In this document: positions 4,571-60,800 of the stretch, one piece after another
How positions within the stretch are numbered: position 1 is the first letter of the stretch
Layout of the letters: each line of letters begins with the position of its first letter
Source: Closterium sp. NIES-65
Lineage: Eukaryota; Streptophyta; Zygnematophyceae; Desmidiales; Closteriaceae
Direction: 5' to 3'
Length of the DNA: 64,000 nt
Assembly (NCBI GenBank): GCA_948144175.1
Contig: CANXME010002463.1
Span: forward strand, 2,069,001-2,133,000
Program-made: the position numbers and the translations under genes
Notes under the pieces: generated by a model
The model's input: only the letters and a program-made list of their open reading frames with translations
Databases searched by the model: none
Told to the model about the DNA's origin: nothing

Positions 4571-4603
<33 letters not shown>

Positions 4604-9491: not shown

Positions 9492-9495
9492 TAAG

Positions 9496-9622
9496 TGACG
9501 AGAAGTGAGGATGGATGAACTATGAAAGAGTTGGGTACAAGTACTAACCCTAATTGGGTTGTACCCCAAATGGGCTACCCCACTACAACCTACACAAATG
9601 TATAAGCTATAATGTTCTAACA
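9496..9622 (-). repeat. 3' LTR of copia-2
   Basis: A 127-bp direct repeat of 19341-19467 with 5 mismatches and no length change. It begins TGACGAGAAGTG and ends AACA on the plus strand and is flanked on its left by the target duplication ATAAG. A short G-rich polypurine tract adjoins it at 9623-9632 (minus strand ATGGGGGTG). Confidence 0.93.
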
Positions 9623-25900: not shown

Positions 25901-28900
25901 GCTGAGGGGAAGAGGGCGGCTCCCGCCGTGGTGGGGAAACACGAGGACCAACTCCAGCAGCACCACGAGCCCGAGACTCACCCCGCCGGAGGCTGCAGTA
26001 CTGTGAGTACCACTCACGCAGCTGCTGCGAAGAGGGAGGTCCTCCAGGCGCCTCACAGTCAACTGCAACACCACCAGGCTCAGCACCCCCAGGTTCAGCA
26101 ACTCCAGGCGCAGCACCCCCAGACTCAACAACGCCAGGCTTAGTACCCCCAGACCCAGCACCCCCAGGCTCAGCACCCCCAGGATCAGCACCCCCAGACT
26201 CAGCACCCCCAGGCTCCGCCCGCTCAGGCTCCGCACGCTCAGGCTCAGCACCTCTAGTAGGACGCGAGTCGATAGCTACCTCGGCAGGCTCAACCGGGTC
26301 TACCTGAGAGACACCTGAGGGAGCGGCACCCTGAGGGGGAAGGGGGTCTACCACTGCAGCACCTGGCGCGAGGAAGAGAGGCGGGGGAGGGAGCGGGGCA
26401 GTGCGGTAGGGGAAGAGGCGGTAGAAGGGCACGGACTCGTCAAAGGTGACGTCCTGAGAGGGGAAGACTCGGTGCGAGGCGGGGTGGTAAAACTGCCAGC
26501 CAGACGCATCCGGGACAAAGCCAAGAAAGACACAGGGAGCAGTGCGGGAGGAGAGCTTGTCCGCAGACGTGTCGCGAACAAAAGCTCGGGATCCCCAGAC
26601 ACGGAAGCGTGACGCATCGCCAACCTCCCCCGTCCAGAGCAGTGTGGGCGAGGTCTCCGGAGCGGAGACACGGGGCCAGAGGTTGAGCTGATGCGCAGCG
26701 TACCGGACCGCAAACGGCCACAGAAAGTGGGGGGCAGCCGCGTGGACTAAGGAGGTACGAGCGACCTCCATGACCAAGCCAATGCGGCGTTCAGCAACCC
26801 CATTCTGCGGTGGAGAGGCCAGGAGCGTGAACGACTGGCGAATGCCGTGCTCGGCACAGTAGGCTGCCAAGAGGTCGGAGGAGAACTCGCCACCTCTGTC
26901 AGAGTGCAAGCGCAGAACAGGAAACTCCGAGCGAAAACGCTCTCGCAGCTGAAGACGTGCTCTGCTGATCCAGGGGATCAGAACATCAGGGACTTCACCC
27001 TTGGTGCGCAAGGGGAAGACCGTGGTGTAGCGTGAGTAGTCGTCAACGACGATCAAGAAGTACCTCTCCTGGCCCTGACCACGGACGCGGGCTGGGCCCC
27101 ACACGTCCATGTGGAGCGTCTGCAAAGGAGCAGTCGTCGGGGGGAACGAGGAGGAGTGAGGGGCAGCGCGCTGCCGCCCCTCGACACAGGGAAGACAAGG
27201 AGGAGCAAGGGAGGGTGGGAGGGGAGGGAGTACCCGAGGAAGACCAGAGACAAGGTACCGGGCGTGCATGCCCCGAAGGCGCTGCACTGACGGGTGACCA
27301 AGTCGGTGGTGCCAGAGGACAGTCTTGTGCGCTAGAGAGCGACACGAGCAGGGGGCAGAGAGCTGACCTGACGCAGACGCAGACGCCGCTACCTGAGGGG
27401 ACTCAGTGGTCAGTGTGTACAGGTCCGACCCCGGCTGCCGAGTGAAGGTAGCCAGGTGACGGCCCGTCCGAGCACACGTGCAGTGTGTCACACGCTCGTA
27501 GGCAGGGGTGAACTGGTGAACACCCCCATCCTGAAGCGCACAACCCGCCACCAAGTTCGTAGAGAACGAGGGGAGGTGGAGACCTGACAGTGTGCCCGAC
27601 GGGACAGCAGGACAAGGAAGGAGGGTGGAGGAGGTCGCAATGACCGGACCCCCAGAGGGGTCAGCGAGCGAGACAGCGACTGGTCGAGCAAGGGGCTCAA
27701 GAGCAGTGCGGTCACGAAAGAAACAGCGCGAAGCGCCTGAGTCTAGAGTGAAGGTGTGCAGTGCCTCAGTGGACTCAGTAGTACCTGGGGTGGCGGACAC
27801 ACACGCACCTAGAGCAGTAGCCTCACCAGTACCTGGGGTAGCAGACACGCAAGTACCTAGGGCGGCAGCCTCACTCGTGCGGATGCCTGGGTCAGGCGGA
27901 ACACTCAGGTACTGGTCCTCCTCTCCACTAATAGTCAATGCATACATTGCTTTGAGAATAACATCAAAATCAAGAGCATAGATATCGATATCCTTCTTGA
28001 GGAGATCAGCCCACTGAGGGAGCTCAGGAGCGTCAGGAAACTGAGCACGCCAAGCGTCATCTAGGCGAGAGAAGCAGCGCTGCAAAGTGTGCGCCCTCCC
28101 GCACGTCTGTCCCTTGCGGCGACCAGTGCGGATGACGTACGTGCAGCTAAGGCTACCCCCCCCACCCCCGTGCTGTAAGTACCACTCACGAAGCTCCTGG
28201 GAGGACTGAGGGTGCTGCGCACTCTGGCCAGTGCCAGAGCCTCCACGACCACCACCGCCGCCTCCACCACGACCACCACCGCCCCTGCCGCCGCCACGTC
28301 CACTGCCGCCACCACCACCGCCCCCACCCCGGCCACCGCCGCCGCCGCTGCCTCCACCACCCCCACCGCTGCCACTAGCCCCTCCAGCCCCGCCACCGCC
28401 CCCGCCGCTGCCACCACCCCCACCACCGCCTCCCCCGCCGTCACCCCCACCGCCCTTGCCTCCCCTGCCCTTGCCGCTGCGGCGCCCGCTGGGAGCGGAC
28501 GCAGAGCCGACCTGCTCAGCACCAAGAAGGTCTACAGCAGCAGCAGAGGCGACAGAGGGGAGGAGGGGGGAGGGGGAACACCCTTCGAAGAAAGGGGTGC
28601 GGGGGTCGCCACGAGAGGTACCTACAGCTACAATGCTCTTCTCAGCTGCAAGTAGTTCCTTCTCTAGGGCGGTAATGGTGAGCTCAGTGGGGCAGCGAGC
28701 TAGGAAGTGGTCCCTGACTGTACGCAGAGTGTCAGGGAGGCGGGTGACTAGGTGGTAGAGAGTGAGCCAGAGCGGGGGAGGGTTGGAGGCAAGAAACTCA
28801 GCGGGCATGGCTGCACGGAAGCGGGCATCACTAGTACGGAGGTGAGTGATGAGGTCAGCGACTGTCTGGAAAGCGGACAGGTCGGGGAACAGGTAGGGAA

Positions 28901-29324
28901 GGGAGAGACGGCCTAGTGCAGCTGAGGTCGGGGAGGAGTAGCGCGCAACTACTGCAGTGTACAGGGCCTGCGCAGTCTGATGCTGGCCGAAGTGCTCACG
29001 CTCATCTACTGGCAGGGAGTTGCGAATAGCAAAGCGGGCGTGGGCATCGCGAGTCTGCCACTGCGAGCGAGCAGTAGCGGTAGCAGTAGTAGCAGGAGCA
29101 GGGACTGTGCCTAGTGCGTGATCGTACAGCGAGATATCCTCTCTGGCAGTGAGCTGGAGGAACAGGTGCAGATCATCGAGCCAGGTATCAAACTTAATCG
29201 GGTGGCCCTCAGAATCGAACGAGAGAACTGTAGGGCTAGCCATAGCTGAAGTAGCAGTAGTGGTAGTAGCAGTAGCAGTAGCAGTAGCAGTAGCAGTGCT
29301 GTGCACAGGTAAGTAGGGCACGGC

Positions 29325-29925
29325 TCGGCTAGGGCGGCGCGGCTCGGCTAGGGCGGCGCGGCTCGGCTAGGGCGGCGCGGCTCGGCTAGGGCGGCGCGGC
29401 TCGGCTAGGGCGGCGCGGCTCGGCTGGGGCAGCGCGGCTCGGCTGGGTCGCGCGGTTCGGTTCGGGTCGCGCCGTGCGGCTCGGTCGTAGAGGGGCGAGC
29501 GCGGGAGGGCCGGTCGGGGCTAGCGCGGGGCCAAAAGGGGGGGGGGGGCGTGAGAGGCTAGCGCGGGGCCTGCAGGGGACGTGGGAGGCTAGCGTGGGGC
29601 CGTGAGAGGCTAGCGCGGGGCCTGCAGGGGCCGTGGGAGGCTAGCGCGGGGCCGACGGGGGCCTTAGGAGGCTAGCGCGGGGCTAGCGTGGGGGCCGACG
29701 GGGGCTTAGAAGGCTAGCGCGGGGCCGATCGGGGGCCTTAGGAGGCTAGCGCGGGGCTAGCGTGGGGCCGACGGGGGCTTGGGAGGCTAGCGCGGGGCCG
29801 ATCGGGGGCCTTAGGAGGCTAGCGAGGGGCTAGCGTGGGGCCGACGGGGGCCTTAGGAGGCTAGTGCGGGGCCGACCGGGGGCCGTAAGAGGCTAGCGCG
29901 GGGCCATACGGGGCCTTGAGAACGA
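29325..29925 (-). repeat. GC-rich tandem arrays in the copia-3 leader
   Basis: About 29325-29450 holds GGCTCGGCTAGGGCGGCGC units of about 19 bp in near-perfect copies. About 29560-29925 holds GAGGCTAGCGCGGGGCC units with GACGGGGGCCTTAG joints. As in the other two copia elements, the arrays lie between primer site and gag, but the units are not the same. Confidence 0.88.
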
Positions 29926-34852: not shown

Positions 34853-37800
34853 ATGCAGCAGGAACAGTTGAATCGACGAGGCTCTTTCTCAGCCACCGGC
34901 CGCAGACGATCGTTCACCTCTTCCCTGCGGAGAAGTTTTTTCGATCAAATCCATCTCCAAGTGCTACACGTGCTTGTGGCTGCACTTCTCGTACATTCCC
35001 TCAGTCTCACCGTACGGGCCCAGTTCTTGACAGAAAGAACGCGCGCGCAGGACAGCGTTATGATTGCGGTAAGCTCGAGGCCCCGCACAAGGCAACCTCG
35101 TATCTTTCAATGCGTCCTAGTGTCCTATCACAAATTTGGCCTTCTCTGGCCTTCGCATTTCACTAACTTCGCCCTTCTCTCTCGTCGTCTTCCCCCCTAC
35201 CGCAGAGGTATCAAGCGGGGCTGTCGAAGATGTGTCTCGGAACCAGTCGCGAGAGTGCGCGGGCGGTTGTCGCCAACGCCGATTACGCCGTCAGCGACGC
35301 CAACGTGGCGCTCGGCTATTCGCAGGCGACGAACGCCACCTTCATGTACATCGGTGGCGCGAAAATGAAGGGTAAAGTACCCCTCTTTTTCTTCTACATC
35401 GCGAAATTGGGAAGTGCGGAAAGTAGCCCTGAATACACTCTTGCACAACTTACCCGATAGTACACCCCCGGCACTTTTGAGTCAAGGTTTTAGAACTGCG
35501 TGGCGACAGTCACTGGCGTAGTAACTTCCGAGTCACTTTCCCGCGCCTTTCTGCACAAACTCAGTCAACCGTTTAGCAACGCCACCCGCATCTGCGCACA
35601 TGCTAAACAGTCACGGGCTGCTCCACCCAAATGTTCACCTGCCCATACCGTGTCAACCAACTCGAAAGCGACGAGCACGTAACCCCAACTGCCAATCCGT
35701 ACGGGCTTCCCCACGTGGCATACTGTTTCAACTCCCACGTCCACGTAAGCGTACATGCAGCAAAACGTACAGCAACCACAACCGTTGGATGGACACCCTG
35801 GTCACGCAATCACTACGGTACACGTGTCGCCTGTACATAAACTCGCATAGCACGTTACGCATTCGCGCACACAAACTCGCACATCCTTGCAAGCTCACCG
35901 CGCTCCGATCTGCACCGTACATCTGGTGGTCAAGCATCCTTCCCACACCGTACATTTGGATGCATCCCATAGGGCAGCAAACCGCATATCACGCCAACGG
36001 TAGCCACTACCCCTCATCCACGCGGCCTCACTCCACTTGCGCATCGTGCGTCCGCACCAGACGCGCCAATGCATAAACACCGTACACCTGAACCAATGCC
36101 ACCGTTTCGTGCACTTCGCGAAAAGTCTCGCCTACCATTAGGGTTGCGCTCGCAACTAGATGACGACGACACCTGCGTCGTCCATCTGTATACATCGTAA
36201 ACACCACCGACCTTCCACGTCACGCACAATTAATCCATCTTACCCGTACACTTGCAACCCGATCATGCAATCGCACAAACGGTAACCGGTTGCCCTACCC
36301 ATCGTGGCTCACGTTTGCGACGTATGCGCGAACCACTCACAACCGTGCATTTGTCGCACCCGTATAGCATATCACAGCGCACATCCCACCGTCGGCCTCA
36401 TCTTCACGCTCGTCCACGATTGTGACACGGGTGTACAAGCGCGTGCCACCCTCCCATACCATTGGCTCCACGTCATCCCTTAGCCTTGTTGCGGTCCAAC
36501 CAGATGTCTACTTACGCGCACCGCTGCATCCTTTACGTCCAACGTACAGGTGACACATGGCACACACCGTAAAATTCGCCGCAGAATGCGGCGCATCCCT
36601 CTCCGTCCCGCACATCTGGGCGACGGCGGGTTCGCTGTGGCATGCACCATATAGTTTCTGTTATGTGCTGTCATATGCGAGCAATACCCCAATTGAAGCT
36701 TTTCCCATTAACAACAAACGCACACACAAACATACAACGCCTCCACGCCTATGTCTAACCCCCCCACATCTTCAACACTGACACATGCTTAACCCAGGTG
36801 CGCGTTCCACAGCTACACATAACCCTGTCACACAGCCGCAAATCATCGTACACACGCAGCCAATCTACTGTCCCCGCAACGGTAAAACCCACGCTTCCCC
36901 CATCCCCTCCACGCCAGCCGTCCTACTCATCCCCCACGGATGCCGAAAGGTCGTCGTCCCCCACTGGCTCCTCCGGCTGGGCTGCGCCGGCGGGCCTCAT
37001 GTGCTCCAGGCCGCACGCAGAGATGCGCAGGCCATGGCGCCCCCAGATCCACGCCTCCCGCTCCGCGTCATACTCCGGGTTGCGGATCCTGATCGCCCTC
37101 TCCACGGCCTCCTTAACCAGGACCTTGAGGCCGTCCACAACGTGGGCGTTTCCGCCGGCCGAGTTGGAAAGCCGGCCTTTCCTCTGCTCCCAGTAGAGGA
37201 CGCAGTCGGAGACCTGCGCCATCACGCATCGTGTCACTCAAATGGTTAGACGTAAACAACACAGATGCATGGCACACATAGAGCGCACAGACTCACCACA
37301 TGCTCCAACCAGGCCAGGTGGTACACCTTCAGCGTCATCACCAGGCCGGCCTTCTTGGGCCTGAATGCAGCCTTCGCACATGTCGCGAACGCCCGAGAGG
37401 CGAACGGCATGCCATCCCGGTCTGTCGCCCATGTCGTGAGCACCAGTGTTTCTGCATTCCCACGTGCATGCAGGTCAGTGTCAACGGCCGTCACGCACGA
37501 GGGTGACAGCATAACGATGCGGTGGCAAGCCTGGTTGCTGGGGTAGACCGCACTCACCAGGGGGGTCAGCGCCGAACCCAATGCGCTCCCGGATCTTCTC
37601 AATACTGCGTTCCTTCTCCGGTGCCCATGGGCTGGATGCGTCCCGATCGTCGCGGAACAAGCCGAGCTTGGGAAGTGCAATGTCGCGCACGCGGGCGGCA
37701 GCCCGCGTCTTCCACTCAGAGAGTGTCTTGTTGAGATCAGCGCGACGCGACTAGTCAGCCGCCAACGCCAAACAGGCGAAGCTATGCGGCAGGCGGTCCA

Positions 37801-40800
37801 GCACCGCACACACCCCGTGTGTCTTGTCGTCGCTGCTCGGGTAGAAGGTCATCATCGACGTCGGCCTGTTGAGAAACATGTGCACCCTGGCCAGCTCGCA
37901 CACCCGCTGCGCACATAAGGTATACACAACAACATGAGTGGCGCACACCGGTATGCATGACGGTTGAATAATGGAACCGGACGGGAACGGGCCCGCTCAC
38001 CTTCCACGCCTTGTCCGCAGGCAAATGCTCCAAGGCGCGCTGCAGAATAGGAGACTTGGCCGTGCGCATATGACGGCCACCAGATCCATGTGTGTCGTCA
38101 TCGTCGTCCTCGCCGTCATCGTCTGACCCGCCACTCCACGTCTCGCCACGCTTACGCTTCGGGTTCATACAACCCTGCCCCGGGTCTCTCTGCCTGGTCG
38201 CCTTACGCTTATGAGAGCCGCTGGACGGCCGAGACATCGCATTCAAGAACAGCGCCTCCAACCGCGCGTTCTCCTTGGCGCTCTTGTCCTGAGCCTGAAT
38301 GAGTTGCTCGAGGATACGGCTCGGTATGCGCACGTCATCGCTGTTGGCGTCCACTGTGTCCCAGCGTGTGGGTCCCACCAGTCCGTCCACGTCGTGATTA
38401 GCGCGAGTGTCAGCGTTGGCCGCGGATGGTCCCGCACGCCCATCGTCGTCCGTCTTCCCCCCCTTAGCGGGCTCGGCTGATTCTTCGCCTGATCCTGATG
38501 CCGACGTGTCTCCGCCTTCCTCGTCCTCATCCTCGCTGCGCTCGGACGAATCTGCACTCTCCGCCCCAGTGCCGTCATCTGTGGGTGACAGAATGACAAC
38601 AGGCGCACAGAACCGCAAGTTAGCATACGCGCGCAACAACCGCCGCGAACGTCGTGACTGATCCACTCATGATCGTAATGCATACCTTCCTCTGGCTGCA
38701 CCACCTCCTTCCCCTTCTTGCGGAAGCTCAGGCTCTTGGGTAAGGGCGCCCCACGGTTCCCGTTGGACAGTCGACCTCGCGGCATCGTCAACTGGTATGA
38801 CGCTCGCAGGTACGCAGGCGGGAGCGAGACACGACGGGAGCGTCCCCCAGCTCGGGTATCCTCAGAAGCAATTGAGGTATCCATTGAAGCAACTGAAGTA
38901 TCCAGTGAGATGCGCACATAATGACGCGATAACCACTTTTCTACGTAGCGGTGAGATGCTCAGCTTCCATGACACTCCGCTGCACCGAATACATGAGGAG
39001 GTTGGTACCCAATACTGCCTCGTACACATCTGGATGACCGCAATCCAAAACCCCCAATTACAGAACACCACGTCACTCGCACATTGACGGGTGTCCACCC
39101 CCGAACCATACACTGCGCACATCATGTGGTCACAACATTGTCCACATACCTTCATTGTGTGGACACTCGTCACGGAACTGGTTCCGGTATTCGTTGAGGC
39201 CCTTACTCACTTAAACATGTAGTACACCAAGTTCACGATTGCATTACCAGCTAACGGTGTTTGTCGTTCATACTTTGCACGCACAAGACTCTTCATTCCA
39301 AATGCAACATTATCCGAAAGCTACACAAGGGTGAGCAACTACGTGCACGGACATGTTTCAACCACACATTGACTCCACACCAATTATGCAGCCATCTCTG
39401 ATGTCTTCTCCTCAGCTCCAGTGTCTTCCCTCCGCTCTTCCTGGTCATTGTCCCTTGCACCTCCGCCTTGCTCGTTTGTCACTGGGGCCGTCCCCCCACT
39501 CTCAGCATTGTCGGTTGCCGCTGGGTCGTTGGTAGCTGTGTGGTCGTGGTCCACAACCCTGCGCCTCTTTGATGCACCTGTTGCACCCCCACGCTTCCTC
39601 ACTCGTTTCAACCGCTGGCCCACGCTCTCCAGCGCCTCACGCCAACTCCTCCACCTCCACCACTTCCTCGCTTCCACCAGGGTCTGTAAATCTTCTTTGG
39701 TGCACCCCCGCAGCGTTGCCTTCTCTGCGGCCGACAGGCTGACGGTGTTGGGTATCCTCTCGCTAGGCCTCAGCACGAACGCACCGGCGGCGTATGCAAA
39801 TGCCGCCTCCTCCTCAGTGGTGTACCCTCCCAGTCTCTGCTGCTTGCGCTTCCCACGTTCTTTAAACAGAATCTTGACGCAGTACTTGCCGGTGTTCGGA
39901 TCCAGCTTCACACCCGTGTACCTGGTTGCACATGTATCTTCGCCACCGTCCTCGTCATCTGAATCTGACACGAGATCCTCCTCTTCGTCGGCCTTCGCCG
40001 TCTCCTGCCCAAGCCTGTCTCCCCACACGTCAGGTCCAGCTGGCACACCCGTGCCGGACAGCAGCCGCGGGCGCGTCAACATCCAGGGAGGTATGGCCCC
40101 GTTCGAGATCAGCGGGTTCTGCAGCAGGCTCGGTGTCGGCGCACATGCGGCGAACGTGGAGGCCAGCGCCACCTGGGTGAGGTTGCGCACGCCGTCCTCC
40201 TCAGGACTGCTGTCATCTCGCCTCTTCCGGGCAGACGGACGCTGGGGTGTGCGTGGCGCATGCTTGTTGCCACCCGCCTCTGTTTTCGTGCCGTTCCCCG
40301 CGACCCCTCCATGCAGCAGCAGTTGGGTTGCAGCGGACACCACCTCGTCCCGGCTCAGGCCCACGAAGTTGGCGATCACGGTGAAGCTGGCGTCCAGGTA
40401 CCTCACATCGTTATGCAGCGATGCTATGCGCCTCGTCATCTCCGTAAACCGAGCGTCCTCATCATGGCGAGTGTTTGGCGCCTGCCTCCCATCTCCCTCC
40501 GCAGTGTTTCTCACCTGCACCACTGTCCCCTCTGCGGTAACCAGGCCTTCGTCTTGCGGCGGGACTTCAATCCCCAGTTCCTGTAGTTGTTTCAGAAGCT
40601 CTCCGCCAGCGTGTGCACACAAGTCTCGGCGCATCTCCCGCCTGTATTGGTGCGGTGTCACACCCTGGAACCAGAGGCCCGAAAACACCGTGGCGAAGTC
40701 GGTATGCACCAGGGTCTTGAGGTACTGACAAACAAAAATCCCACAGTCCTCCTTGTTCGGCTGCTGTGGCAGCTTATCCTCCTGTCATAAGGGTAACGAA

Positions 40801-43800
40801 TACCGAAGTTATCAGTATGCACACCTGTGTATGCAACCAGCACAGCTGTGTACAGAACGAACGAGGCGTACTCACCCGTAGAATTACGCAGTCCGCCGCG
40901 CTCAGCGTCCTGTCCACAACCTCCATGTTAGCGTTTGGGTTACTCGCCTTTGCGAGTTCGGACAGCAACCTGCATACAAGAGTTCGTCCGGTATTAACAA
41001 AATTGAGCATGGACGTATATGCTATGCGCTTCGTTATGCCGAAACCCCTACTCACAGCTTCGTGCCTGCGAAAATCTTGTGGCTATTTCGATTCTTGATC
41101 GCGCTGTCCAGCAAGACCAAAGTCAGGCGCTCCTTGCCCTTGGTTCTCTGCGTCTTGGTGAGCACCGATGGGTTTATAGCGATGACGAGGGAATAGTGCT
41201 CACTGCGCGCAAGAAGATTGGGGTGAAACGGGATCGGTGTTAAACAGCAGTCGGTTGCACATCACGGAAACCAACCGGGAACACTGGTAAGATGAGTACA
41301 CTCACGACTCTAGGACCGGGATCGCAAGATAATCGTGTTCCAAAATCGGCCGCCCACTCCCCAGCGTTAACGGCACTCCATGCGCAGCTGTCGTCTGTGA
41401 ATAGGCCTTGCAGTCCATGGCGGCCCATGTCTTGCCGTCGCGGAGCGACGGCTTCCTGATGCTAAGCAGCCTGCGCAGAGGTGAACACGAACAAGTTAAC
41501 ACACCGTGCTACAGTGAGATGCGCAGAAAATCGTACAAAAGCGCGCGCATGTGCGGGGCTGTCAGCACGGTACTTACACGTTGTGAAAGTCCACCACGCC
41601 ATCGGTGATCCACTGTTCGTCCTCGATCGACATGAAGTCGTCCTTGTCCACCTCACATCCGACACCGCGGTGATTCATGAGCCTGATGTTGCGGTAAGAT
41701 GATTTCGCATAGTTCCGGGCGATAGCGGCCACCACATCGTCCGGCACCGGCTCTGTCGCCTTTTCCACGACATGGGTCGCGAACCTAGAAGCCCTTCCGC
41801 CGTCCTTTGTCGGCGGACACGGAGGTGATTTTTTGTCGCCCTTGGTCGACGCTCTGGTTCTGGGAACAGACGGGTCAGGATCTTGGTCATCGCCGCTGCT
41901 GCTAGTCTCCGGTTCATGGAACCGGTTGCGCTTAGAGACAGACTGTTTAGGAATCGCCATCAAGAACGGACACTGAATACCATGCGGAGGAGGCCGGCCT
42001 TAATACGAGGTGAGCACGGAGGGGATGACTGGGAGAACACAGCCACTCACGGATCTCGCCTGGAGGGAACTACTCTGATTGACGGGTGGGCCAAGATGTC
42101 GCCTATAACCTGGTGGGTGTTGGGCATGCATAGGCGAAATGGTATACACCGTTGGATGAGATGCGCATGCGATGTCCACCTGTGACTCGATAACGAGACT
42201 GGATGTGATGGTGAGGCAGCATGCATATCCACGTGTTGTAAACCAAGGGGTTCGGAACACGAGGATGCGAGATTTAGGGTGGGTCAGCAATTCTGGTGCA
42301 TGGAACACCATTTGGTTTTCCTTGTACAATCCAAGTGACGCGGAATCCGATAACGGCGTACGCGGACGTCAGCACTTGGGTTGTTGGGCCACCAGCGCGC
42401 ACTAAGTATGGGTTGTACACGATGTAGTCGTGTACTCTTAAAAGCGGAAGTAAAATTTGTAGGTTGTCGTAAACAATATTGCAATATGCATAACGGGTAT
42501 ATGACGTGCAAAAACAATACACAACGTCTTATGGAGCCAACTGTGTACAATCCCACGACGTCAGTTATTGGCTATTTCTATTTCTGGTCGTACTAATTAC
42601 CGCGCTGATAATTCCGGGTCAAAAACGGGGAGTGTTATTTACCGGACCACCGTTACACATTCTGCAATTATAATATGGTTGTGCATTATGGTTGGGTGTA
42701 TAATGTTTACCGGTGACAATCGAACAGATGGTATGTGCACACTTTTCAAAGTTCTGTGCACATGAGTGTGCACCATGTTGATCCTCTGAGTTGTGTTAGA
42801 GCACACCTGTGGCCAGTCCGAGTTTCTATCGCCACGGTCTCTAGGGTTTCAAGGTTGCAGGATGACGGGGAACAGTTGCATGGTGTGCGAGACGGTGTTT
42901 AAGGACGACAGCCGGTTACAGTCACATGTCGCTAACGGTGCAATTTGTCGCGCAGAGTTGAAGAGGAAACGGGAGAGTCTTTTGTTGGCGGCATATTTGG
43001 AAGCAATTGCCCGTGACGGAGAGAGTAGACCAAACACACCGCCCGCATCGCGGCTTAAGGATAATGACGGCAGTGTTGTATCGGTTGCTCCGACCGCCTC
43101 TATTCCCGAAGTTAGCCTGGTTAGCGTCGCGGATACACCAGCTGACGGCGAGAATGCGGAGTCATCGGAACACAGCGAGAGGGCGGAGATTTTCGACACA
43201 CTGACCGAGTTGTATCTATTCTTCCGTGACGCCGATCTTTCGCACCGGGAAGTTAACCGTCTGTTACACATTTTCCGCAACCCGCGCTTCAACTTACGGG
43301 CCCTCCGACGATGGCGCAACTGGGTGGACGTGCGCCGATGGGGAATGGCGCGCGCTCCAGCAGACATGGTCCCGTGGAAAACGGAGGAGATAGTGGTGCG
43401 GGGCCCCAAAGGAATGCAAATGAAGCTGCTACTGCACTACCGCGACACAGAGCTGGTTCGTAAACGGCGGCCACACCCGCATCCCCCGTCGTCGTCACTG
43501 GGAAGGAATCTTGCCGCTCACTCCTGATTATATCCCGATGCGCGCAGATTCTGAAGAAGCTGGTGCGGACGTTCTCATCCAAGAAAGGGTTCGTGTGGAA
43601 ACCTAAGAAGATTCATCGGAAGAAGAATGGCGAGAGGGTATTCGAGGGGCCGGAGACGGGCGATTGGATGCACGCTGCTCAGGTAAGTGCATCGGTAGGC
43701 CAGTCCACATTACATGTGAGTCCCAGAATGCTATAAGACGGAGTCTAACATTTGTGCAAGGGCATGTATGGTTGGCATGGCAGAAGGAGATTAATGACAG

Positions 43801-46800
43801 TGAGGCACTCATACTAGGCGTGCTGATATACAGTGATAGCACCCAGGCATCACGGAATGGTCGGAGGAATGCGTGGCCGGTGCTGATCTCGCTTATCAAC
43901 ATACCAGCGGAATTACGTGGGGTGGAGCCTGGGCACACGTTGGCGGCGGTGCTGCCATTCCCACCCGAATGGGCATCGCCCACGGAGAAGACGCGGGTTT
44001 TCCAGGAGGCATTGAAGATCATCCTCGCGCCCATCATGCGAGAATCTGCAAGGTACTGAGGTGCATATGCTACACGAGCAGCAGGCCAGTGGGGACCCCA
44101 GCAGATATTGCCCCGTGTTATGACCGCGTATTGTGTGTACGTTCCTAACCTAACTCACGGCCACGTGTGCATCGTCACAATGTGCAGCGGGCCAGTTCGC
44201 TTCTTCTACTGCACGGACGCGGACGGGAAGGTGCACAAAGCGGTCCCTTGCCTGTACGGATACCCTGCCGACTTTCCGGAGTCCAGCAGAGCTTCTGCGA
44301 CTCTTCAGCAGGGGACGCACCGGCCGTGCGCTAACTGCTATGCAGACAAGGGGGAGTTGACCATGATGGTGGGGAAGGCCGATCCGCGTACCCCCGAGAT
44401 GCAGAGGGACATTGTCCGCCAGATCCTGGCGTGTAAGAAGAAGGGCGACGCTGACGCCGTGCGGAGGCTATGGTCAACACATCCGATCGAGGTGGGCTAA
44501 ACCCTGAGGGCGTTTGCGTGCCTGTAGTGTACGGTGGAACCTAATGACGCGGTGGTGTCTTTGGTTGGACATTGCAGTGCGTACTTCACAGGTGGAATTT
44601 CGCGGACACAGAGTGGGGCAACGTGTATCTGGCATGCCTTGCAGACACACTGCATGTTCTGGACTCCGGTGTGCTGATCCACATGATGGACACCTACATC
44701 GAACCGCTTGGGAAGGTTGAGATGCGGACGCTTGAACGGTGAGCAGACTGTAGCCTGCATGTCATATCCTGGTGGGGTCATTTGGGTTGTAGTACACCAT
44801 GTGTGCAGCGCTGATGGGCACGTCGAATACTTGGTGTGCGCAGACGCAAGAAGGAGTTTAAGGCCATCACGCCTAGCGTGCTCCTCCGAATCCCAGGGGG
44901 CTCATCGTTCTTCGGTTCCGGCGCAAACTACGCTGCGTTCGAGCACAGGAGCATGATGCAGATAATGCCGATCTTGGTGGCTGACGAGAGCGCGTTGAAG
45001 GGTGATGAACCGGGAGAGCTGCGCGCGTTGCAGGTCAAAGCGTTCAGGCTGTTTGCTGTGTTTTACAAGGCGTTTCTGGCTGTGGACCGGCACACACATA
45101 CCACCATTGCGATTGCACGGCAGCATGCGATAGCGTAAGTGTGTGCATTAGGTGCATCGCTGGTCGGAATTGCGGTGGGTTTGTTGTGGCGGCCGTCGGG
45201 TGGCACACGAGTGTGCATTGACTGTTGCCTGCCATCGTGGACGATGTGGCAGGTTGGTGGCGTTGCTCCCGAGAGCATTTCCAAAGCAGGCATCCCACTG
45301 GAGACTACCAAAGATACACATGATAAGACATTTACTGGACAACGTGGTGGAGCGCGGGATGCCGCACCATTATTCCACTGAGATGTGGGAGCGCACGCAC
45401 AAGGGCACGGTCAAGGGTCCAGTTAGAGGGAGCAACTGGAGCGACATTCCGCGCCGAATCGTGGAGGAGGAGGTGCAGAGAGAGGTGTACCGTGAGGTGG
45501 CTGCAGACGCCGGCGGTGGGCGGCAGTATGCGTCTGCATTGCGCGAGGTGCGTAGGGGAGTGGTTGGTGCTACGATGGCCATTCATTGTGTAATGTTGCA
45601 CGGGTGCCCATGTACGAGCGGAGCCTGAGGCAGGTTGCGGCTTGTTGTGGGAACGTGGTTGTACACGTGCAGGCAATCAAGACGAGGAAACCGGTGCTTA
45701 CAAAGAAGTATCGGATCATGCGCATAGGCGGGGCGTCGGATCCGGTGTACGATGAGTACACAGCCGCGCTTGGAGACGAGATGAAGGGGATGGCCGCGGA
45801 GTTTAAGGCGTTGGACCTGGCTACCAACAACGTGCAGGTGTGGTGATAATGCTGTCGCACATACATCTCGCACCTGGGGCTTGCACGTTGGTTGCCACTG
45901 CACTCATGATGCTAAGAGATGTTGGATTGTACACAACCGCGTGACAGGTCCACACCGCGGTGGCCATTCCGCGCACAAGAGGCGGCGAGCTGGTGGCCAA
46001 AGGGACGTTTGTGAAGGCATCTCCACGAGAGAGGTGGTACTCGAACGTGGCACTTCTGAACAACAAGAAGGGGGACTGGTATGCAAGATGTCTGTGCATC
46101 TTCAGGGCGCTTGACCGTGATGGGGAGTGGAAGGGATACGCATACGTGAGGTACTACGAGAGGGCGGGAAGCTGCAAGCTTACAGGGTGCACGCAGCTGC
46201 ACAAGAAAGTGGAGAAGGTGAGGTATTCGGTGGTGGAGCTGGGCAGCCTGCAGAGAGTTGTGCACGTGTGCCCGTCGTACAGCAACAACAAGGTGCAATT
46301 AGTTAACAGGTTTTTGCTATGTGAGTGACGGCACGTGTTGGTATGGTGGAACTTAGGAATGATGGGTACAGGATTGCAGGGAGTGTAGTCAACTGTGGTG
46401 GGATGTTTATACTTTGGGTGGTTCAGGTTAGTGTTGACGCTGATGTGTCGCCACATATTGTGATGAATAAATGTGATATGGTGTCCGTGGGTGTACATTG
46501 GCATTTTGTGCATGGGTACGCGGTGGCAACCCTAAACCCGAAACGTATATGTTGGTGTTTAAACAGTGAGGTTATAGTGGTAGCGGTCAGTAAACCCGGC
46601 CTATAACGGGTCTTGGTACGGTTGACGCTTGTGCGGTCGAAGTTGACGCGCTTCAATGTGTGGTGGTGTGACCGACCGAACACCCGCCGTTGGTTGGTCG
46701 GATACGGGTGACGCGTACGTGGCTTCGATTCGCGAGGTGGCCTATCTGAATGTCACAGGTGGCCGTTTCACATGTGTCCGTTATCTTGGAGCGGCGCAGG

Positions 46801-49800
46801 AGTTGTGCTCGCAAACTTGTGTGGCGCTTGTCAACCCTCGTACGTAGTGTGCGTACGAGGGCAAACCGGGGTACGTTCCAGTGAACTACAACGTATATAG
46901 CAAGACTGGGTGCCATCCCCCAACGCATACTTGCCCACCTGGGTGACACACAGCTTCAATGGGTGACCTGAAGGGACTGCTGGCTACTGCGCACCCGGAC
47001 GATGTGTTCTGCTTCCACGAGATTAATTTTCTTCCGAGCCGCCTCCCGAAGACATACATTCCAGACAAGCGTAATGTTTGCGAGCGGATTGTCAGCATCG
47101 GCATTCTTTACAACGCGACGGGCAGTTGTTCCGCGGTGCCACTGGTGGTCCTATCGCCGTACGATAGGCCCGAGCGCAGGCGGGGGCGTGCGGCATCGCG
47201 CATGGTGGCAGTCCGATATACGCACCGCGGCCGGTTGACTCCGGAGGTAGGTGACAATTACACCTCGCTGTGCACCATGTCTGTGTCATGTTTGCAACGT
47301 ACATGTGTGGGCCGACACACTGATGGTGTTGTGCTGTCGGTGTATGATGCTATGCTCGCAGGTGTTCACGGAGTTTGTGGAGACTGTCAACGGTGTGCAC
47401 TTTAGTCGTGATCGCAACACACTCATCCTAACCATACACGAGGCGCATCACATCACCGGCGAGGTCGCGCGCCCCGTCTCGGAGCACGGCTTCAGTGTGC
47501 AGCACCTCACCAACACCCGTGTCGTCAACATACGTGGGTCGGTTCCCGAAGGGGGCCTTCCGCACCTGCAGGGAGTGGAGGACGCGCTGAAGGCCCATTA
47601 CCGCGTTATGCTGATGAAGCGGGCGATCGCGGCGAAGCGGTTCCAGTTCGACTATGCCGCTTCTATCGCCGACGTGGACTACGGACTCATGCTGGAGTGG
47701 CTGGGGGAATCGTGGACCCGTGTGCGCGCTGCAACCATGCAGAGGAGCTGGTGGCGCGCCGGATGCGTGCCGCCGAGCTGGCCGCCGCTGATGGCGTACC
47801 TGAACGACACCAGCGCGACGGGCATGTTTGAGCCGCTCATTGCGACTTGCGTCGAGCTGCAGTTGCTCATCGAGAAGTTTAAGATGAGGCCTGCGTGCTA
47901 CATGACGGCGGCGGAGTTCGTCAACTGCGACGCGGGGCTCTGCGTGGAGCAGGGGTTCGTTGCCACACCTGCTGCAAGCGCGTCGGATGACTCGTCGGGC
48001 GAGATGAGCCTGCCAGACGGCCCGCTGCTGCGGGACGAGCGCAGCAGGCGGCGCGTCATTCGCAACGTCACAAACGCGTACGTGGAGCGTGCCGATGAGC
48101 TCGGCATTCCCCCGGCCCTCGTGCCAGCAGAGGTCGGCGCATCTAACCAGGAGGTGATTTCCCGCCTCGGCAGGACGCCAGTTAAGCGTGCGCGAGCGGG
48201 GCTGCGCACGGAGGACATGGCAGGCCCTTCGGAGCGCAAGGACGAGGACGACGAGTGATGCAGTTGGTTGAAGTTGTGCGGTGTGTGCGTTGTGCGTGGT
48301 GTGCGTAGTTGGCGTTGTGTGTGTGCGGTACCGTACGCCTGTGGATGACGGGGTTGGGGTTGTATTGCTGTTGTAATAGTGGTTGGAGGATTTTAATGAA
48401 AATGGATGAGTTGGGGAACCTTGTGAGACATTTGACGGTACGCGTGAACTTCGTTTACGGTCCGATGTTATAAGTTGGCACAATGGACGCACCGCGGTCA
48501 CCATAACGCGGGAATTTCATCGGGAAATTTGTGCACACGTTCGCGACTCGGGGTGTAGGTGTGCGCTCCGGGAATTCGATAGCTTTGCGACAAGGATACT
48601 GTAATGTCAGTTTTTTGTGTCTGATGTACGCGCGCGTTTCCGGTGTTCAGAATGTTGCGATTTGCGTGCGTTGTTTTACCGCAGCTTTCCGCAACATTCA
48701 CGCAAGGCAGAGGCAGAAAAACCTTCGGGGGCCAAAAAACGCAGTTTTCCTTTTTCGCGATGTATCCTTCTCTGTCCCTGCTCTGCTCTCATGTGTCCTC
48801 GCCATCCTCCGTGCTGTTCCATTTTTCCAGACTCGCCCGACGGCGCTACTCTTTCTTCCCCTTCGATCCCTCTCCTCAACTGTCTCCCACCGCTACCTCT
48901 CCGTTTTCCCCCTTCCCCCCTTTCCTCTCCCCTGTCTCTTCGTTCGCGCGTGCGCTCATTCCTCCCGACCTCACGTCGTCCCTCCTCCTCCCCTTCCCCG
49001 TTTCTTCTTCTTATCCTCTTTCCCCAGGCCCTCGCCGCTGCGTTCCCCCGGGTCTTTTGGACGTGTACACTTACTACCCTTCTACAAAACAATTCGTTAA
49101 GGGTAATCTGGGCAGCCTGCCCGAGCGTGTAGTGGACTCGTCGTATGTGGTTTCCCTGACAGTGCCATCCTCATTACAAGGCGCCCCGCAAGTAACGCTG
49201 GACGTGTCGAACATGTACCCCACGGCTCTCGAGGTTGACGCAGCAGGAATGGTGTCAGCTCCTCCCATGACGCAGACAAATTTCACGGTAAGCACGTTGT
49301 TCTGTGAGATAAAATTTCTCGTCATCCGTTACTCATTCTGTGTCTACATGGTGCTTGCAGTTTTGGTTCCCACACCTCATTCCATGATCACCGCATCCTT
49401 TCCTCCATATTTTTCAGGTAGCTGGAGCAGATCTCTCCCCTCCGGCCGACCCATATGGAATGGTTTCTGCTTACCTTGAGCAATATGGCGCCAAAGCCGA
49501 CGCTAACGACCTCTCGGGCGCTATACTCGTAACCTACGACCCTTATATCGAATCGCACGTTACGGTGTACATGATTTACCGACCCGTCTATAGTCCCGCT
49601 GCGGTGGTGCAGCAATATTGCAACGCGAACGCTCCGTGTTATTTTGCGTACGAAATGGTTGGTAAGTATGCAGCTCCACAGGATGTGATTGCACGGCGTC
49701 GGAGGAGGCTACTCGCTACACGATCCGATTCGCTGACGACGATGGGGACGTGTGTGCGATACGTGTATAGCCCTTCGTGCAAGTGTTACACAACCCAGCC

Positions 49801-54970: not shown

Positions 54971-56617
54971 TTACGGGACAGTAATACTAACATTGCTCTC
55001 ATCATGGCGGGCATTGCTAGCCCTAGAAGGACTCAAAGCCTTCACCTTATCCCCATACTCCCTAGGCACCAGAAACACCAGGCAGTACGCCACACTAACA
55101 ACACAAGCACCAATTATACTACCAACCCAATAAATCCAATGGTTCTCCCACACATTCGACCAGACAGCAGCGCCGAAGGAACGGGCTGGGTTCATGGAGG
55201 CTCCCGTTAGAGGAACACCCACTATGTGATCCACAAGCACGGCAAAACCAATCATCATCGGAGCGAGGTGGGACGGACCCTTGGGGTCGACAGCAGTAGC
55301 AAAGACTGCGTAGACTAGAATGGCTGTGAGAATGATTTCAGTGAGGACGCCTTGGCCTACAGAGACCCCGGCACCGAGCACGTGTGCACCAAGAGCGTCC
55401 TGCAGAGGAGACACACGGATGAGAGACAGAAAAATTGGTGTTAAGTTGCACAAAATCTGAAGAGAAGGTTGGAAAGGAAATGGGGTGAAAGGGGAGGAGG
55501 GAAGGCGGGGAAGGGAGACAAGGGGATGGGGGGGTGGGGGGGTTAAGGGTGGGCAGGGGAAGGGAAGAGTTGTGCTGGGGTGTAGAGAGGGGGGAAAACC
55601 CAGTGAAGGGAATGACTGGGGTGGTCAGAAAGGGACTTACATGCGTACTGGCAGGAGTTATTGCCTTAACAAGACCAGCACCGAACACAGCGCCTATCAG
55701 CTGCGCTGCCACGTAGGCTGCTGCTGTGATGACGTCAACGAGGCCCACTGCTAGCATGCCAAGTGTGACAGCTGGATTGATGTGTCCCCCTGAAATCCCT
55801 GATGCAGCCCCCACAGCAACCACGAGAGCAAGACCGTGTGCGATGCCAATGGAGAGTATGCGGGTCACATCCAGTCCCTGAACGAATTCACCTGCAATTC
55901 AACAGAGAAAGAGAGAAACAGGAAAAAGAATATTGGCCAACCATCTCAAGTTTCAGAAGTCTCAAAACGCAATGCGTATGGAGACTATGCGGGTCACATC
56001 CAGAACCTGAACGAACTCACCTGAAGATCAACAGGAGAAAATGAGATGGGAGAGAAAACTAAGAACATCTGCCAGGTTCATCATGAAGCAAGCACCCAAA
56101 ACTTTTCCAATTTTGTAAGGCCCAACTTCACACAGATTCTTGAACCAGACCAGATTGAAGTAAATCAACCATGGAAAGGGGAGAACACCAGCTTGAATTG
56201 AACTCACTTGAGACAGCCACTGACCCCACGCCAACGAAGATGGAGAACATGGTTCCAACCAGCTCCGCCGTTGCGGCACAGGCAAGGTGAACCAGGTTCA
56301 GCATGTGGGCTATATGGACGGAACTCGCACAAGAGCTGCTTTTTACTCACTTGAGACGGCCACTGACCCCACGCCAACGAAGATGAAGAACATGGTTCCA
56401 ACCAGCTCCGCCGTTGCGGCACAGGCAAGGTGAACCAGGTTCGGCATGTGGGCTATATGGACGGAACTCAGACAAGAGCTGTTTTTTACTCACTTGAGAC
56501 GGCCACTGACCCCACGCCAACGAAGACGAAGAACATGGTTCCGATCAGCTCTGCCATGGCCGCACAGGCAAGGTGAACCAGGTTCGGCGGCTGAAGCCAC
56601 TGCTTGAACTGAGGCAT
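54971..56617 (-). CDS. TIP-like aquaporin (tonoplast intrinsic protein)
   Basis: Exons 56617-56494, 55891-55641 and 55399-54971 join in phase to 267 residues. This is a normal length for a major intrinsic protein with six membrane helices. Both pore motifs are present: GGHINPAVT (NPA 80-82) and GASMNPARSFG (NPA 195-197, with R198 of the selectivity filter). His60 in IGIAHGLAL fits the helix-2 filter residue of TIPs, so water and small-solute passage through the vacuolar membrane is the likely role. The first exon encodes MPQFKQWLQPPNLVHLACAA and ends after the FVGVGSVAVS helix. Two further copies of most of this exon lie downstream (56351-56447 and 56208-56304), each with its own ATG and GT donor; they may be alternative first exons. 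A short copy of the start of exon 2 lies about 55975-56024. Confidence 0.88.
56208..56304 (-). repeat. Third copy of aquaporin exon 1
   Basis: Encodes MLNLVHLACAATAELVGTMF followed by SIFVGVGSVAVS and ends at a GTGAGT donor (56207-56202). It shares several differences with the second copy, so the second and third copies are closer to each other than to the upstream exon. Confidence 0.8.
56351..56447 (-). repeat. Second copy of aquaporin exon 1
   Basis: Tandem copy with donor GTGAGT at 56350-56345. It would encode MPNLVHLACAATAELVGTMF and then FIFVGVGSVAVS, with the same splice phase as the upstream exon. It has an ATG of its own (56447) but no acceptor in front, so it could serve only as an alternative first exon or be inert. 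Confidence 0.8.
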
Positions 56618-57864: not shown

Positions 57865-60800
57865 TCATTGAGGCGGAGGCTGGCTCTCCAAACGTTCTGG
57901 CTTCCTTTTTAGAGTCGGCTTCGCTTGCGGACGCAGCGGACCTCCCTGTCTCCTTGCACCACCAGCTCTCCTTTGCACTGGCCGAGCCTGCCCCGCACCC
58001 GAACCTGTCTGCCGAACCACAGGCCCAGATTGCCTCCACCACGTGGTCCACCCGAGCCTCTCCGTGGCCCCGAACCTCGCCTCTAATTCACCCGCACCAT
58101 CACTATCACTCTCTCTCTCCCTTCCACCCTCCTCCCACTCATCCTCCTCTTCATCTAAACACCCCGCCACCAACACTGTATGCAGACTCGCCGATTCTGA
58201 CTGCCCCGGAAAATCCGTGGTGAAATGCAATCCACGGCTCTCTCTCCTCCTCAGTGCGCTACGTACGACCAGAGACGCGACATTGATCAGATTCTCCATC
58301 TCGCACGTCTCCATTGAGACGGCGCCACGTGGCAGCAGCACATTGGTCTCCAGGTCAGCTCGCCAGGAGGACGCCAGCATGTCGATTTCCCTCTGGGCTA
58401 TTCGGAGACGGTCGGTGGATCGGACAATGCCGACGTAGCGCCACATAATAGCCTGGGGATACAATGGTGGGTGGAAAATGGAGTGGTAAGGGAGATGAAG
58501 TCAAAGAAAACTAAGGGAAAGTTTGAGGAGGAAAAATAACTTCCATCCGTACACGAAGTCGATGAACGTGCCCCTCAGTCCATTAAAAACAGATGCCTAC
58601 CTATAGTAATGACGAATGCTCTTCCAAAAAGGCTCACCTTAAGTTGCTCCCTGTACTTGGCAGTCACTCCAGCAGCAGCAACCGCTCCTGAATCCCCCTT
58701 GCTCAACCCCACCACCTTCACCTCCTCCCCCTCCCCTTCCACCTCGCCCTCCCACTCCTCCCCCCCCCACATCGTTCCATCCATATCCCTCCCATCAGGC
58801 AACCCCGCAAGCACATGATTCAGCGGCGCAGCAGCCACCGCATGTTCAATTGCCGGCTCGACTGCTCTCTGCGCAAACACCAGCGCTTCCAGCAGCGAAT
58901 TCGATGCCAGACGATTCGCCCCATGGAGACCCGTGCATGCCACCTCCCCCGCCGCCCACAACCCCCGGATCGAAGTCTCCCCAAACAACCCCGTTTGGAC
59001 CCCCCCGCACATGTAATGCGCGGCGGGGACAACTGGGATCGGGTCCTTGGTAATATCCACCCCCCACCGCTTGCATTCTGCTGCGATGTTCGGGAAGTGC
59101 CGGAGGATCTCGTCCGTCGGTTTGTGGCTGATGTCGAGATAGACGAACAGATCGCCGCGCCGCTTCAGCTGGTCGTCAATGGACCGGGCGACCACGTCGC
59201 GAGGGGCGAGCTCTGCCCGCGGGTCATAGTGAAGCATGAAGCGCTCTCCCGCTTGGTTGTACAGCAGCCCGCCTGCCCCTCGAACAGCTTCGGAAATGAG
59301 GAAGGAGTTGGGGCGCGGCCCTGGGGGTTGGATGGGCAGGCCTGCGTCCGCAAGGGCTGTTGGATGGAACTGGATGAACCTGAAGGAGGGGGGATGGAGG
59401 AGAGCGGAAAGAGGAGAGAGAGGAGTGAGTTGAGCCCGTGGGCGACCACGTCCTGGGGAGTGAGCTCTGCCTGCGGGTCGTAGTGCAGCATGAAGCACTC
59501 GCCGGCTTGGTTGTACAGCAGCCCGCCTGCTCCCCTCGCGGCCTCGGAAATGAGGAAGGAGTTGGGGCGCGGGCCGGGCGGGTGGATGGGCAGACCCGCG
59601 TCTGCCAAGGCTGTTGGGTGAAACTGGATGAACCTGAAGGGGGAAGGGTGGGGGTGGGGTGAAAACAAGGGGAGGGGGATGAGGGTGTTGCGAAGGGCAT
59701 GGAGTGGGGGAGGGGCATGACAGCACTGAGTGGGGGGAGCGGGGAGGAAAGGCAGGAAAATTGGGGGGAGAGGGGGATGGGGAAGACCCAGAGGAAGAGG
59801 AAGTGGACTCACTCCATGTTTGAGATGACAGCGCCTGCACGCAAAGCCAGAGCTACACCGTCCCCAGTTGCCACCTGCACACATACATACACACACACAT
59901 ACACACATATGCATAGGCGGTGAGACACTGGGAGACTGAGAAACTGAAGCATCTTGAGAACAGTAACATGTGCAGGCGAGACATGAACCGGTTCCAAAAA
60001 TGGAGGTGCCAAAAAAACAATCTTCGTACCGTGGGGTTGGTGGTGTTGGGGTACACGTGGCCTGCTCCCCCTGTAGCGAGCAGTGTGGATCCCGCTATAA
60101 AGCGGATGATCTGCCCCGTCTCCGTGTCCAGCGCCTCCACGCCGTAGCACGTGCTCTGCCCGCCGTCCTCCTGTAGATACCAAGGAGGAAGGGAGTGGGG
60201 AAAGAGTGGGAATGTTGATGCTCTGCTTCCTTGATCTGCCCCGTCTCCGTGTCCCGAGCCTCCACGCCGTAGCACGTGCTCTGCCCGCCGTCCTGCTGTA
60301 GATACCAAGGAGGAAGGGAGTGGGGTAAGAGTGGGAATGTTGATGCTCTGCTTCCTTGATCTGCCCCGTCTCCGTGTCCCGAGCCTCCACGCCGTAGCAC
60401 GTGCTCTGCCCGCCGTCCTGCTGTAGATACCAAGGAGGAAGGGAGTGGGGTAAGAGTGGGAATGTTGATGCTCTGCTTCCTTGATCTGCCCCGTCTCCGT
60501 GTCCCGAGCCTCCACGCCGTAGCACGTGCTCTGCCCGCCGTCCTGCTGTAGATACCAAGGAGGAAGGGAGTGGGGTAAGAGTGGGAATGTTGATGCTCTG
60601 CTTCCTTGATCTGCCCCGTCTCCGTGTCCCGAGCCTCCACGCCGTAGCACGTGCTCTGCCTGCCGTCCTCCTGCAGGGGTGGTGAAAGGGGGAGGGTAGG
60701 GAAGAGGGAAGCGTGGGGAAAGAGTGGGGTTACTGATGCTCGAGCTTCTTCAAGCATAATCTGCCCCGTCTCTCTGTCCAAGGCCTCCACGCCATAGCAC

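What the first reader, a model, noticed from the sequence alone, without database searches (positions are those of the whole stretch)
35463..48555. A 13-kb, four-gene DNA transposon inside a host intron
Paralogues A and B share exon structure, yet intron 2 is 284 bp in A and 13,656 bp in B. The extra DNA carries a nine-exon Plavaka-like transposase whose frame closes exactly (2634 nt), a divergent Ulp1-AP2 gene whose frame also closes (2190 nt), a dead DDE_1 protein and an unknown acidic protein. The sequence shows the insertion and gene content; Plavaka and Ulp1 are known families; the view that these four genes travel together as one undescribed element is inference.
Basis: partly seen in the sequence, partly recalled or inferred. 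Interest (0 to 1): 0.92.

Follow-up and report, generated by a model that had tools for sequence, protein, structure and literature searches.

The report
Four-gene Plavaka transposon in alga
A 13.4-kb jumping DNA element carrying four genes sits inside an intron of a desmid alga gene, and some twenty nearly identical copies show that the four genes move as one unit, including a second, apparently dead transposase-like protein that selection still preserves.

Summary
Intron 2 of gene B (35372-49027) holds a 13,366-bp element at 35397-48762, bounded by CATCGCGAAA...TTTCGCGATG and a 2-bp target duplication (TA). It carries Ulp1-AP2 and an acidic protein on the - strand, Plavaka transposase and a DDE_1-like protein on the + strand. 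The host assembly, taken to be Closterium sp. NIES-65, holds 21 places at 99-100% identity, the window included. All 21 show all four genes in the same order. Matching 2-bp duplications are present at 17; 3 do not match (two reciprocally swapped) and 1 has lost its left end. A related locus lacking the insert of another copy reads across the junction with one TA. Four ~80% copies keep all four genes; of 15 ~72% places only one shows all four in capped lists, and that one keeps the same ends and a matching TSD. Predicted proteins show the same neighbours in other Closterium strains. The DDE_1-like protein has lost recognisable catalytic residues, yet evolves at dN/dS 0.11-0.20: a conserved accessory, not a fossil. 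The window's acidic gene has a premature stop. New variant of a known kind; I did not find this gene set in print.

The parts
35395..35396 (.). left copy of the 2-bp target site duplication (TA)
   Evidence: matching 2-bp TSDs at 17 of 21 places
35397..48762 (.). whole element, 13,366 bp
   Evidence: exact ends at ten other copies, 7 of 10 also 13,366 bp
35397..35406 (+). left terminal inverted repeat, CATCGCGAAA
35915..36619 (+). six subterminal CCGTACAYYTGG-like motifs, same orientation (tentative binding sites)
   Evidence: six here with up to 2 mismatches, 8 in the whole element, about 3.2 expected per 13.4 kb from the rest of the window; motif picked after looking
36923..38785 (-). acidic / coiled-coil protein gene, 5 exons (38785-38686, 38578-38001, 37906-37558, 37451-37297, 37213-36923); premature in-frame stop in exon 3 of this copy
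39384..41960 (-). Ulp1 (C48) protease with AP2-like domain, 5 exons, 728 aa; catalytic H, D, Q, C present by motif
41961..42861 (.). central divergent intergenic region, presumably the two promoters
   Evidence: position only; inference
42862..46328 (+). Plavaka transposase, 9 exons, 864 aa, C2H2-like N-terminus, D-D-E with C(2)C and H(3)H
   Evidence: frame closed in 11 of 11 copies
46959..48258 (+). DDE_1 (pogo/Tigger-type) protein, catalytic residues replaced, 2 exons, 394 aa
48753..48762 (-). right terminal inverted repeat, TTTCGCGATG on + strand
48763..48764 (.). right copy of the 2-bp target site duplication (TA)
35372..49027 (+). intron 2 of host gene B, into which the element is inserted

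Best explanation
This is one autonomous-type cut-and-paste DNA transposon of the Plavaka group (CACTA/EnSpm relatives), 13,366 bp, inserted at a TA in intron 2 of gene B of Closterium sp. NIES-65. Shown: exact ends, 2-bp TSDs, some twenty near-identical copies, a related empty site for one of them, and four genes in fixed order. Inferred mechanism: the Plavaka transposase excises and inserts the element by DDE chemistry at the CATCGCGAAA ends. The Ulp1-AP2 protein most likely binds element DNA through AP2 and removes SUMO (or cleaves a partner) to relieve silencing or regulate the transpososome. The DDE_1-like protein most likely acts as a non-catalytic DNA-binding or assembly subunit taken from a pogo/Tigger transposase. 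The acidic coiled-coil protein is a scaffold or regulator made alongside Ulp1. A break of the acidic gene in one copy need not stop mobility if other copies supply the protein in trans (inferred).
For: Whole-copy alignments: the window element matches ten other copies end to end at 99.3-99.8%. TSDs: 17 of 21 near-identical places match at 2 bp, 1 in 16 expected each by chance. Gene order: acidic, Ulp1, Plavaka and DDE_1 at nearly constant offsets in 21 of 21 near-identical places, and all present in the same order, with varying spacing, in 4 of 4 ~80% places. Empty site: C1548 reads across the C501 junction with one TA. Old copy C531 (72% in Ulp1, 77% in Plavaka, 86% in DDE_1) has the same TIRs and TSD CA/CA. 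Selection: dN/dS against the window Plavaka 0.08-0.11 (4 of 4 copies), DDE_1 exon 2 0.11-0.20 (9 of 9), part of Ulp1 exon 5 0.34-0.45 (6 of 6). Of 140 homologous predicted Closterium proteins, 48 join Ulp1+acidic and 18 join Plavaka+DDE_1.
Against: Three of 21 near-identical copies lack a matching TSD: two on C2325 with swapped dinucleotides, C2270 with TC/TG. One has lost its left end; in C2031 the left TIR carries two changes. In the 72% class only 1 of 15 places shows all four genes in the scored lists, 13 of 15 show at least one partner, and 2 of 15 none (only the 40 best of 54-167 candidates are scored, and two of the five DDE_1 partners lie 28 and 47 kb away). Ulp1 and Plavaka lie 7-25 kb apart there, so old copies carry extra DNA. 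The left TIR was found in 1 of 5 old-copy left stretches, the right TIR in 4 of 4, and neither in the four ~80% copies. Two predicted proteins show another neighbour order (P0029, P0066). No expression or activity data exist. The roles of three of the four proteins are inference. The fold of the acidic protein could not be predicted. Within the recent family DDE_1 shows a ratio of 0.90 on 15 changes, and 0.48 between two old copies.
Confidence: 0.9

Rival explanations
1. A cluster of independent insertions: separate elements carrying Plavaka, Ulp1-AP2, DDE_1 and the acidic gene happened to land in one intron.
For: DDE_1 belongs by sequence to another transposase type; in older copies the gene blocks lie farther apart.
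Against: Same order, nearly the same spacing and the same outer ends in some twenty copies with different flanks; expected chance of a Plavaka match within 30 kb downstream on the same strand is about 0.0007 per place; same neighbours in predicted proteins of other strains.
Confidence: 0.02
2. A Plavaka element in which only the transposase matters, the other three genes being passively captured cargo.
For: Ulp1 domains are known as additions to plant CACTA and MULE elements (PMC2528002, passages read); the acidic gene is broken by a stop in 3 of 11 copies and shortened in a fourth.
Against: dN/dS 0.11-0.20 for DDE_1 and 0.34-0.45 for Ulp1 between subfamilies; the genes co-occur over deep divergence.
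Confidence: 0.2
3. The copies spread by segmental duplication of the host genome rather than by transposition.
For: C2198 carries the same insertion with flanks 99.8-99.9% identical to the window locus; C531 and C1894 share a right flank; gene duplication is widespread in these strains (PMC10407611, passages read).
Against: The 12-base flanks differ at the other near-identical places and most have their own 2-bp TSD, and a related empty site exists for C501.
Confidence: 0.03

Closest known systems
Plavaka transposons of fungi, PlavakaB lineage (Kojima 2025, PMC12730594; outline, passages and section 20 read)
   Same: Transposase family (PF18759), C(2)C and H(3-4)H motifs, 2-bp TSDs, termini beginning CATC (CATCA..TGATG in fungi).
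   Different: Fifth base is G (CATCG..CGATG); host is a desmid; no TET/JBP domain among the Pfam matches of the four proteins; carries Ulp1-AP2, acidic and DDE_1-like genes. A word search of that paper's main text found no Ulp1, AP2 or DDE_1.
Plant CACTA/EnSpm elements with Ulp1 (grapevine, PMC2528002; passages read)
   Same: Related transposase superfamily, Ulp1-type domain carried within the element.
   Different: Different ends (CACTA, 3-bp TSD, recalled) and transposase family (Tnp2); no AP2 fused to Ulp1 and no dead DDE_1 reported in the passages read.
EnSpm-Plavaka elements of the green alga Auxenochlorella (PMC12633428; passages read)
   Same: Plavaka-type element in a green alga.
   Different: One-sentence mention; no accessory genes described in the passages read.
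pogo/Tigger DDE_1 transposases
   Same: The fourth protein matches PF03184 above the curated cut-off.
   Different: Catalytic acidic residues not kept; not the transposase of its own element; travels inside Plavaka ends.

Membership tests
Plavaka | Plavaka transposase domain PF18759 | tested here: met
   E 4.3e-32, 112.1 bits against cut-off 26.3
Plavaka | D, D, E with C(2)C and H(3-4)H between second D and E | tested here: met
   Present in the window protein; motifs kept in 16/16, 18/18, 20/20, 20/20 and 22/23 homologues in which the stretch could be recognised, of 32 (the one exception, P0025, still has the E). D, D, E assigned by motif, not by structure
Plavaka | 2- or 3-bp TSD | tested here: met
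   2 bp at 17 of 21 places
PlavakaB | termini CATCA..TGATG | tested here: inconclusive
   CATCG..CGATG: four of five bases agree
PlavakaB | phylogenetic placement in PlavakaB | not tested
   No fungal sequences fetched; the 32 hits of the protein search were all from Closterium
CACTA/EnSpm proper | CAC..GTG ends with 3-bp TSD (as given in PMC12730594) | tested here: not met
   CATCG ends, 2-bp TSD
TET/JBP-bearing transposons | TET/JBP dioxygenase gene | tested here: not met
   None among the Pfam matches of the four proteins
Ulp1/C48 protease | catalytic H, D, Q, C and C48 domain | tested here: met
   Residues present by motif (positions recalled); C48 E 2.5e-11; profile of ten homologues matches yeast Ulp1 1euv, E 0.0015. 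Activity not testable
AP2 domain | AP2 profile match | tested here: inconclusive
   Pfam E 0.0023, below cut-off; 3 of 10 homologues at E<=0.01; profile match to WRI1 AP2 7wq5, E 0.0047
pogo/Tigger DDE_1 transposase | DDE_1 domain | tested here: met
   E 2.7e-9, 37.3 bits against 22
pogo/Tigger DDE_1 transposase | intact catalytic D residues | tested here: not met
   Second D replaced in 17 of 18 aligned rows (P0019 keeps a D), third not recognisable in 17 of 17 rows with the stretch; positions recalled from the family and placed by eye

The most novel reading that the evidence does not exclude
A Plavaka element that has recruited a pogo/Tigger-type transposase, stripped of catalysis, as an essential second subunit, together with an AP2-guided Ulp1 and its partner: a four-protein transposition machine assembled from two transposase superfamilies and kept over deep divergence in Closterium.
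Probability: 0.45. Interest if true: 0.78.

Novelty: new variant of a known kind. Interest (0 to 1): 0.63.

Why it matters
It gives exact ends, TSDs, a related empty site and full gene content for a recently spread Plavaka element in an alga of the group closest to land plants. It also shows a non-catalytic transposase-like protein under strong purifying selection inside another transposon. With some twenty near-identical copies and strains that can be crossed (NIES-64 x NIES-65; PMC10407611, passages), the roles of the accessory genes can be tested directly.

Tried and rejected
Ends at 35463/48555: rejected, other copies begin and end at 35397/48762. TA as part of the TIR or as a fixed target: rejected, TSDs are GC, TC, GG, GT, AA, TA, TG, GA, CA, AG. 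Empty site of the window locus in the same genome: not found, only the two occupied copies and paralogue A. Fold of the acidic protein: two AlphaFold jobs gave mean pLDDT 42.9 and 41.7, so no fold search was run. Ends of four ~80% copies: TIRs not found in the eight stretches fetched; one right end (C1654) matches up to 21 bp short of the tip, the other seven gave no match. Left ends of old copies: found in C531, not in C1661, C1721, C2400, C1851. Count of all TIR ends by pattern: not completed. A motif script missed most DDE_1 sites and was replaced by an alignment. First exon set for the acidic gene was wrong and corrected.
Full report
Observation. Intron 2 of paralogue A is 284 bp and of paralogue B 13,656 bp. 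Within B's intron a perfect inverted match TACATCGCGAAA / TTTCGCGATGTA lies at 35395-35406 and 48753-48764. Taking TA as target duplication, the element is 35397-48762, 13,366 bp. Leaving one TA, the host intron would be 288 bp, close to A's 284 (by coordinates; joined-flank alignment).

Genes. A small splice model gave Plavaka (9 exons, 864 aa), a DDE_1-like gene (2 exons, 394 aa), Ulp1-AP2 (5 exons, 728 aa) and an acidic gene (acidic exons corrected). Pfam: Plavaka E 4.3e-32, DDE_1 2.7e-9, C48 2.5e-11, AP2 0.0023 below cut-off, nothing above cut-off for the acidic protein. A profile of ten Ulp1 homologues matches yeast Ulp1 (E 0.0015) and the AP2 domain of WRI1 (E 0.0047) among solved structures. 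The pairs are divergent: acidic <- Ulp1-AP2 | Plavaka -> DDE_1.

Host. All listed protein hits are from Closterium (32, 33 and 82 hits). The window is contig C2165 of a genome of 874 Mb in 2400 contigs. Five contig lengths (C2293, C2165, C1642, C2198, C783) equal those given for NIES-65 proteins, so I take the host to be Closterium sp. NIES-65.

Copies in the genome. Window 40000-41500 gave 40 places (40 of 54 candidates scored): 21 at 99-100% including the window itself, 4 at 79-80%, 15 at 71-73%. In the 21, the acidic gene, Plavaka and DDE_1 are all present at nearly constant offsets in the expected orientation (21 of 21 each). In the 4, all three partners are present (4 of 4), with wider and varying spacing to the acidic gene (7.8-16.8 kb) and in one case to DDE_1. 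In the 15, the acidic gene was found at 9, Plavaka at 9, DDE_1 at 5 (two of these 28 and 47 kb away); all four genes at 1, at least one partner at 13, none at 2. Those lists hold only the 40 best of 63 (acidic), 167 (Plavaka) and 66 (DDE_1) candidates, so misses there are weak evidence.

Ends. Ten copies were read whole: each aligns with the window element from base 1 to 13366 (one in two blocks), at 99.3-99.8%, and 7 of 10 are exactly 13,366 bp. For ten more, only the ends were read. Including the window, 17 of 21 places have matching 2-bp duplications; one of the 17 (C2031) has two changes in its left TIR. C2198 is the same insertion as the window in a duplicated locus, so 16 are independent. 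C2325 holds two inverted copies whose dinucleotides are swapped (GT..GG and GG..GT), as an inversion by recombination between them, or a misassembly, would give. C2270 has TC/TG. C783:403114 has lost its left end. Two others outside the 21: C191, an internally deleted copy of about 7 kb with TG/TG, in which acidic and DDE_1 matches lie 3.2 kb apart and no Ulp1 or Plavaka match is listed; and C531, a relative at 72% (Ulp1), 77% (Plavaka) and 86% (DDE_1), about 20.9 kb long, with the same TIRs and CA/CA. Of old-copy stretches fetched, the right TIR was present in 4 of 4 and the left in 1 of 5; in the four ~80% copies neither was found.

Empty site. For the copy on C501, a related locus on C1548 reads through the junction with a single TA, 96% identical over 188 bases. 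For the window locus no empty site was found in this genome.

Other strains. Of 140 homologous predicted proteins (host strain included), 48 join Ulp1 and acidic and 18 join Plavaka and DDE_1, among them P0029 with DDE_1 before Plavaka; 1 joins DDE_1 and Ulp1 (P0066). These are gene predictions, so joins show neighbourhood, not real fusions. Contig lengths shared between the three lists pair Plavaka with the acidic gene on 9 contigs, Plavaka with Ulp1 on 5, all three on 3. Identity matrices of Plavaka and acidic proteins over 11 contigs and the window agree (rho 0.70; 4 of 2000 permutations reach it); contigs are long, so a pair may come from two copies.

Integrity and selection. In 11 copies (window and ten) Plavaka closes in 11, Ulp1 in 9, DDE_1 in 10. 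The acidic gene closes at full length in 7, has an early stop in 3 (the window among them) and an in-frame deletion in 1. Five of 11 have all four closed. Within this recent set the ratio of replacement to silent change is 0.45, 0.29, 0.90 and 0.48 for Plavaka, Ulp1, DDE_1 and acidic, on 30, 40, 15 and 28 changes. Between subfamilies, against the window, it is 0.08-0.11 for Plavaka (4 of 4 copies), 0.11-0.20 for DDE_1 exon 2 (9 of 9; one comparison of two old copies gives 0.48) and 0.34-0.45 for part of Ulp1 exon 5 (6 of 6). Six of the nine old DDE_1 copies and two of the four old Plavaka copies carry stops, so part of their change is neutral and the ratios are more likely too high than too low. 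The acidic gene was not tested this way. The DDE_1 protein has H or N where I recall the second catalytic D in 17 of 18 rows, and no recognisable D at the third, yet the protein is kept.

Mechanism. Shown: one mobile unit with precise ends, recent spread, constrained genes. Inferred: Plavaka does the chemistry; the three other proteins bind, assemble or shield the element. I commit to the DDE_1 protein as a non-catalytic DNA-binding subunit and to Ulp1-AP2 as an element-directed deSUMOylase, both at moderate likelihood.

What is known. Fungal PlavakaB elements make 2-3 bp TSDs and end CATCA..TGATG (PMC12730594; outline, passages and section 20 read). Ulp1 in plant CACTA is known (PMC2528002, passages). 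A Plavaka-type element is named in one sentence for Auxenochlorella (PMC12633428, passages; [quoted passage not shown]). A word search of the Closterium genome paper finds no Plavaka (PMC10407611, passages). Searches of the held open-access library: Plavaka with transposon 9 papers, Plavaka with alga 4, Plavaka with Ulp1 0, Closterium with genome and transposable element 17, Ulp1 with transposon, transposase and AP2 3, Ulp1 with DNA transposon and EnSpm 2, Ulp1 with transposable element and green alga 6, a search on inactive accessory transposases 6, two of EnSpm/DDE_1/Ulp1 2. None of the titles listed names such an element; most of these papers I saw only in the listing. Repbase and closed journals were not searched, so an entry there may exist.

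Noticed in passing
window 60107-60673: 125-bp tandem repeat, 4.5 copies at 98%, whose unit looks like a short exon plus intron of an FAD-binding (L-aspartate oxidase-like, name recalled) gene: repeated exon duplication.
   Followed up: no
window 56202-56588: 143-bp tandem repeat, 2.7 copies at 94%, perhaps also exon plus intron.
   Followed up: no
window 24135-29366 (-): Long open Ty1/copia-type polyprotein frame (1743 aa; integrase and RVT_2 domains), with GC-rich tandem arrays beside it.
   Followed up: no
window 5150-7624 (-): Reverse transcriptase/RNase H frame of Ty3/gypsy type.
   Followed up: no
window 13742-14884 (-): hAT transposase C-terminal dimerisation domain in an open frame.
   Followed up: no
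G000 C2325 93377-108542 and 146555-161720 (L015, L016, L021, L022): Two inverted element copies about 55 kb apart with reciprocally swapped 2-bp TSDs, both lacking the Ulp1 stop codon: sign of inversion by recombination between copies, or misassembly.
   Followed up: partly
G000 C2198 (L017, L018): Second copy of the window's A/B locus with the same insertion, flanks 903 of 904 and 898 of 900 bases identical; it lacks the acidic-gene stop of the window copy.
   Followed up: partly
G000 C191 215348-222397 (L057, L058): Internally deleted derivative keeping both ends, with acidic and DDE_1 matches 3.2 kb apart; TSD TG/TG.
   Followed up: partly
L061, L068: C531 and C1894 share the right flank beyond the element, so one old insertion was probably duplicated with its surroundings.
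   Followed up: no
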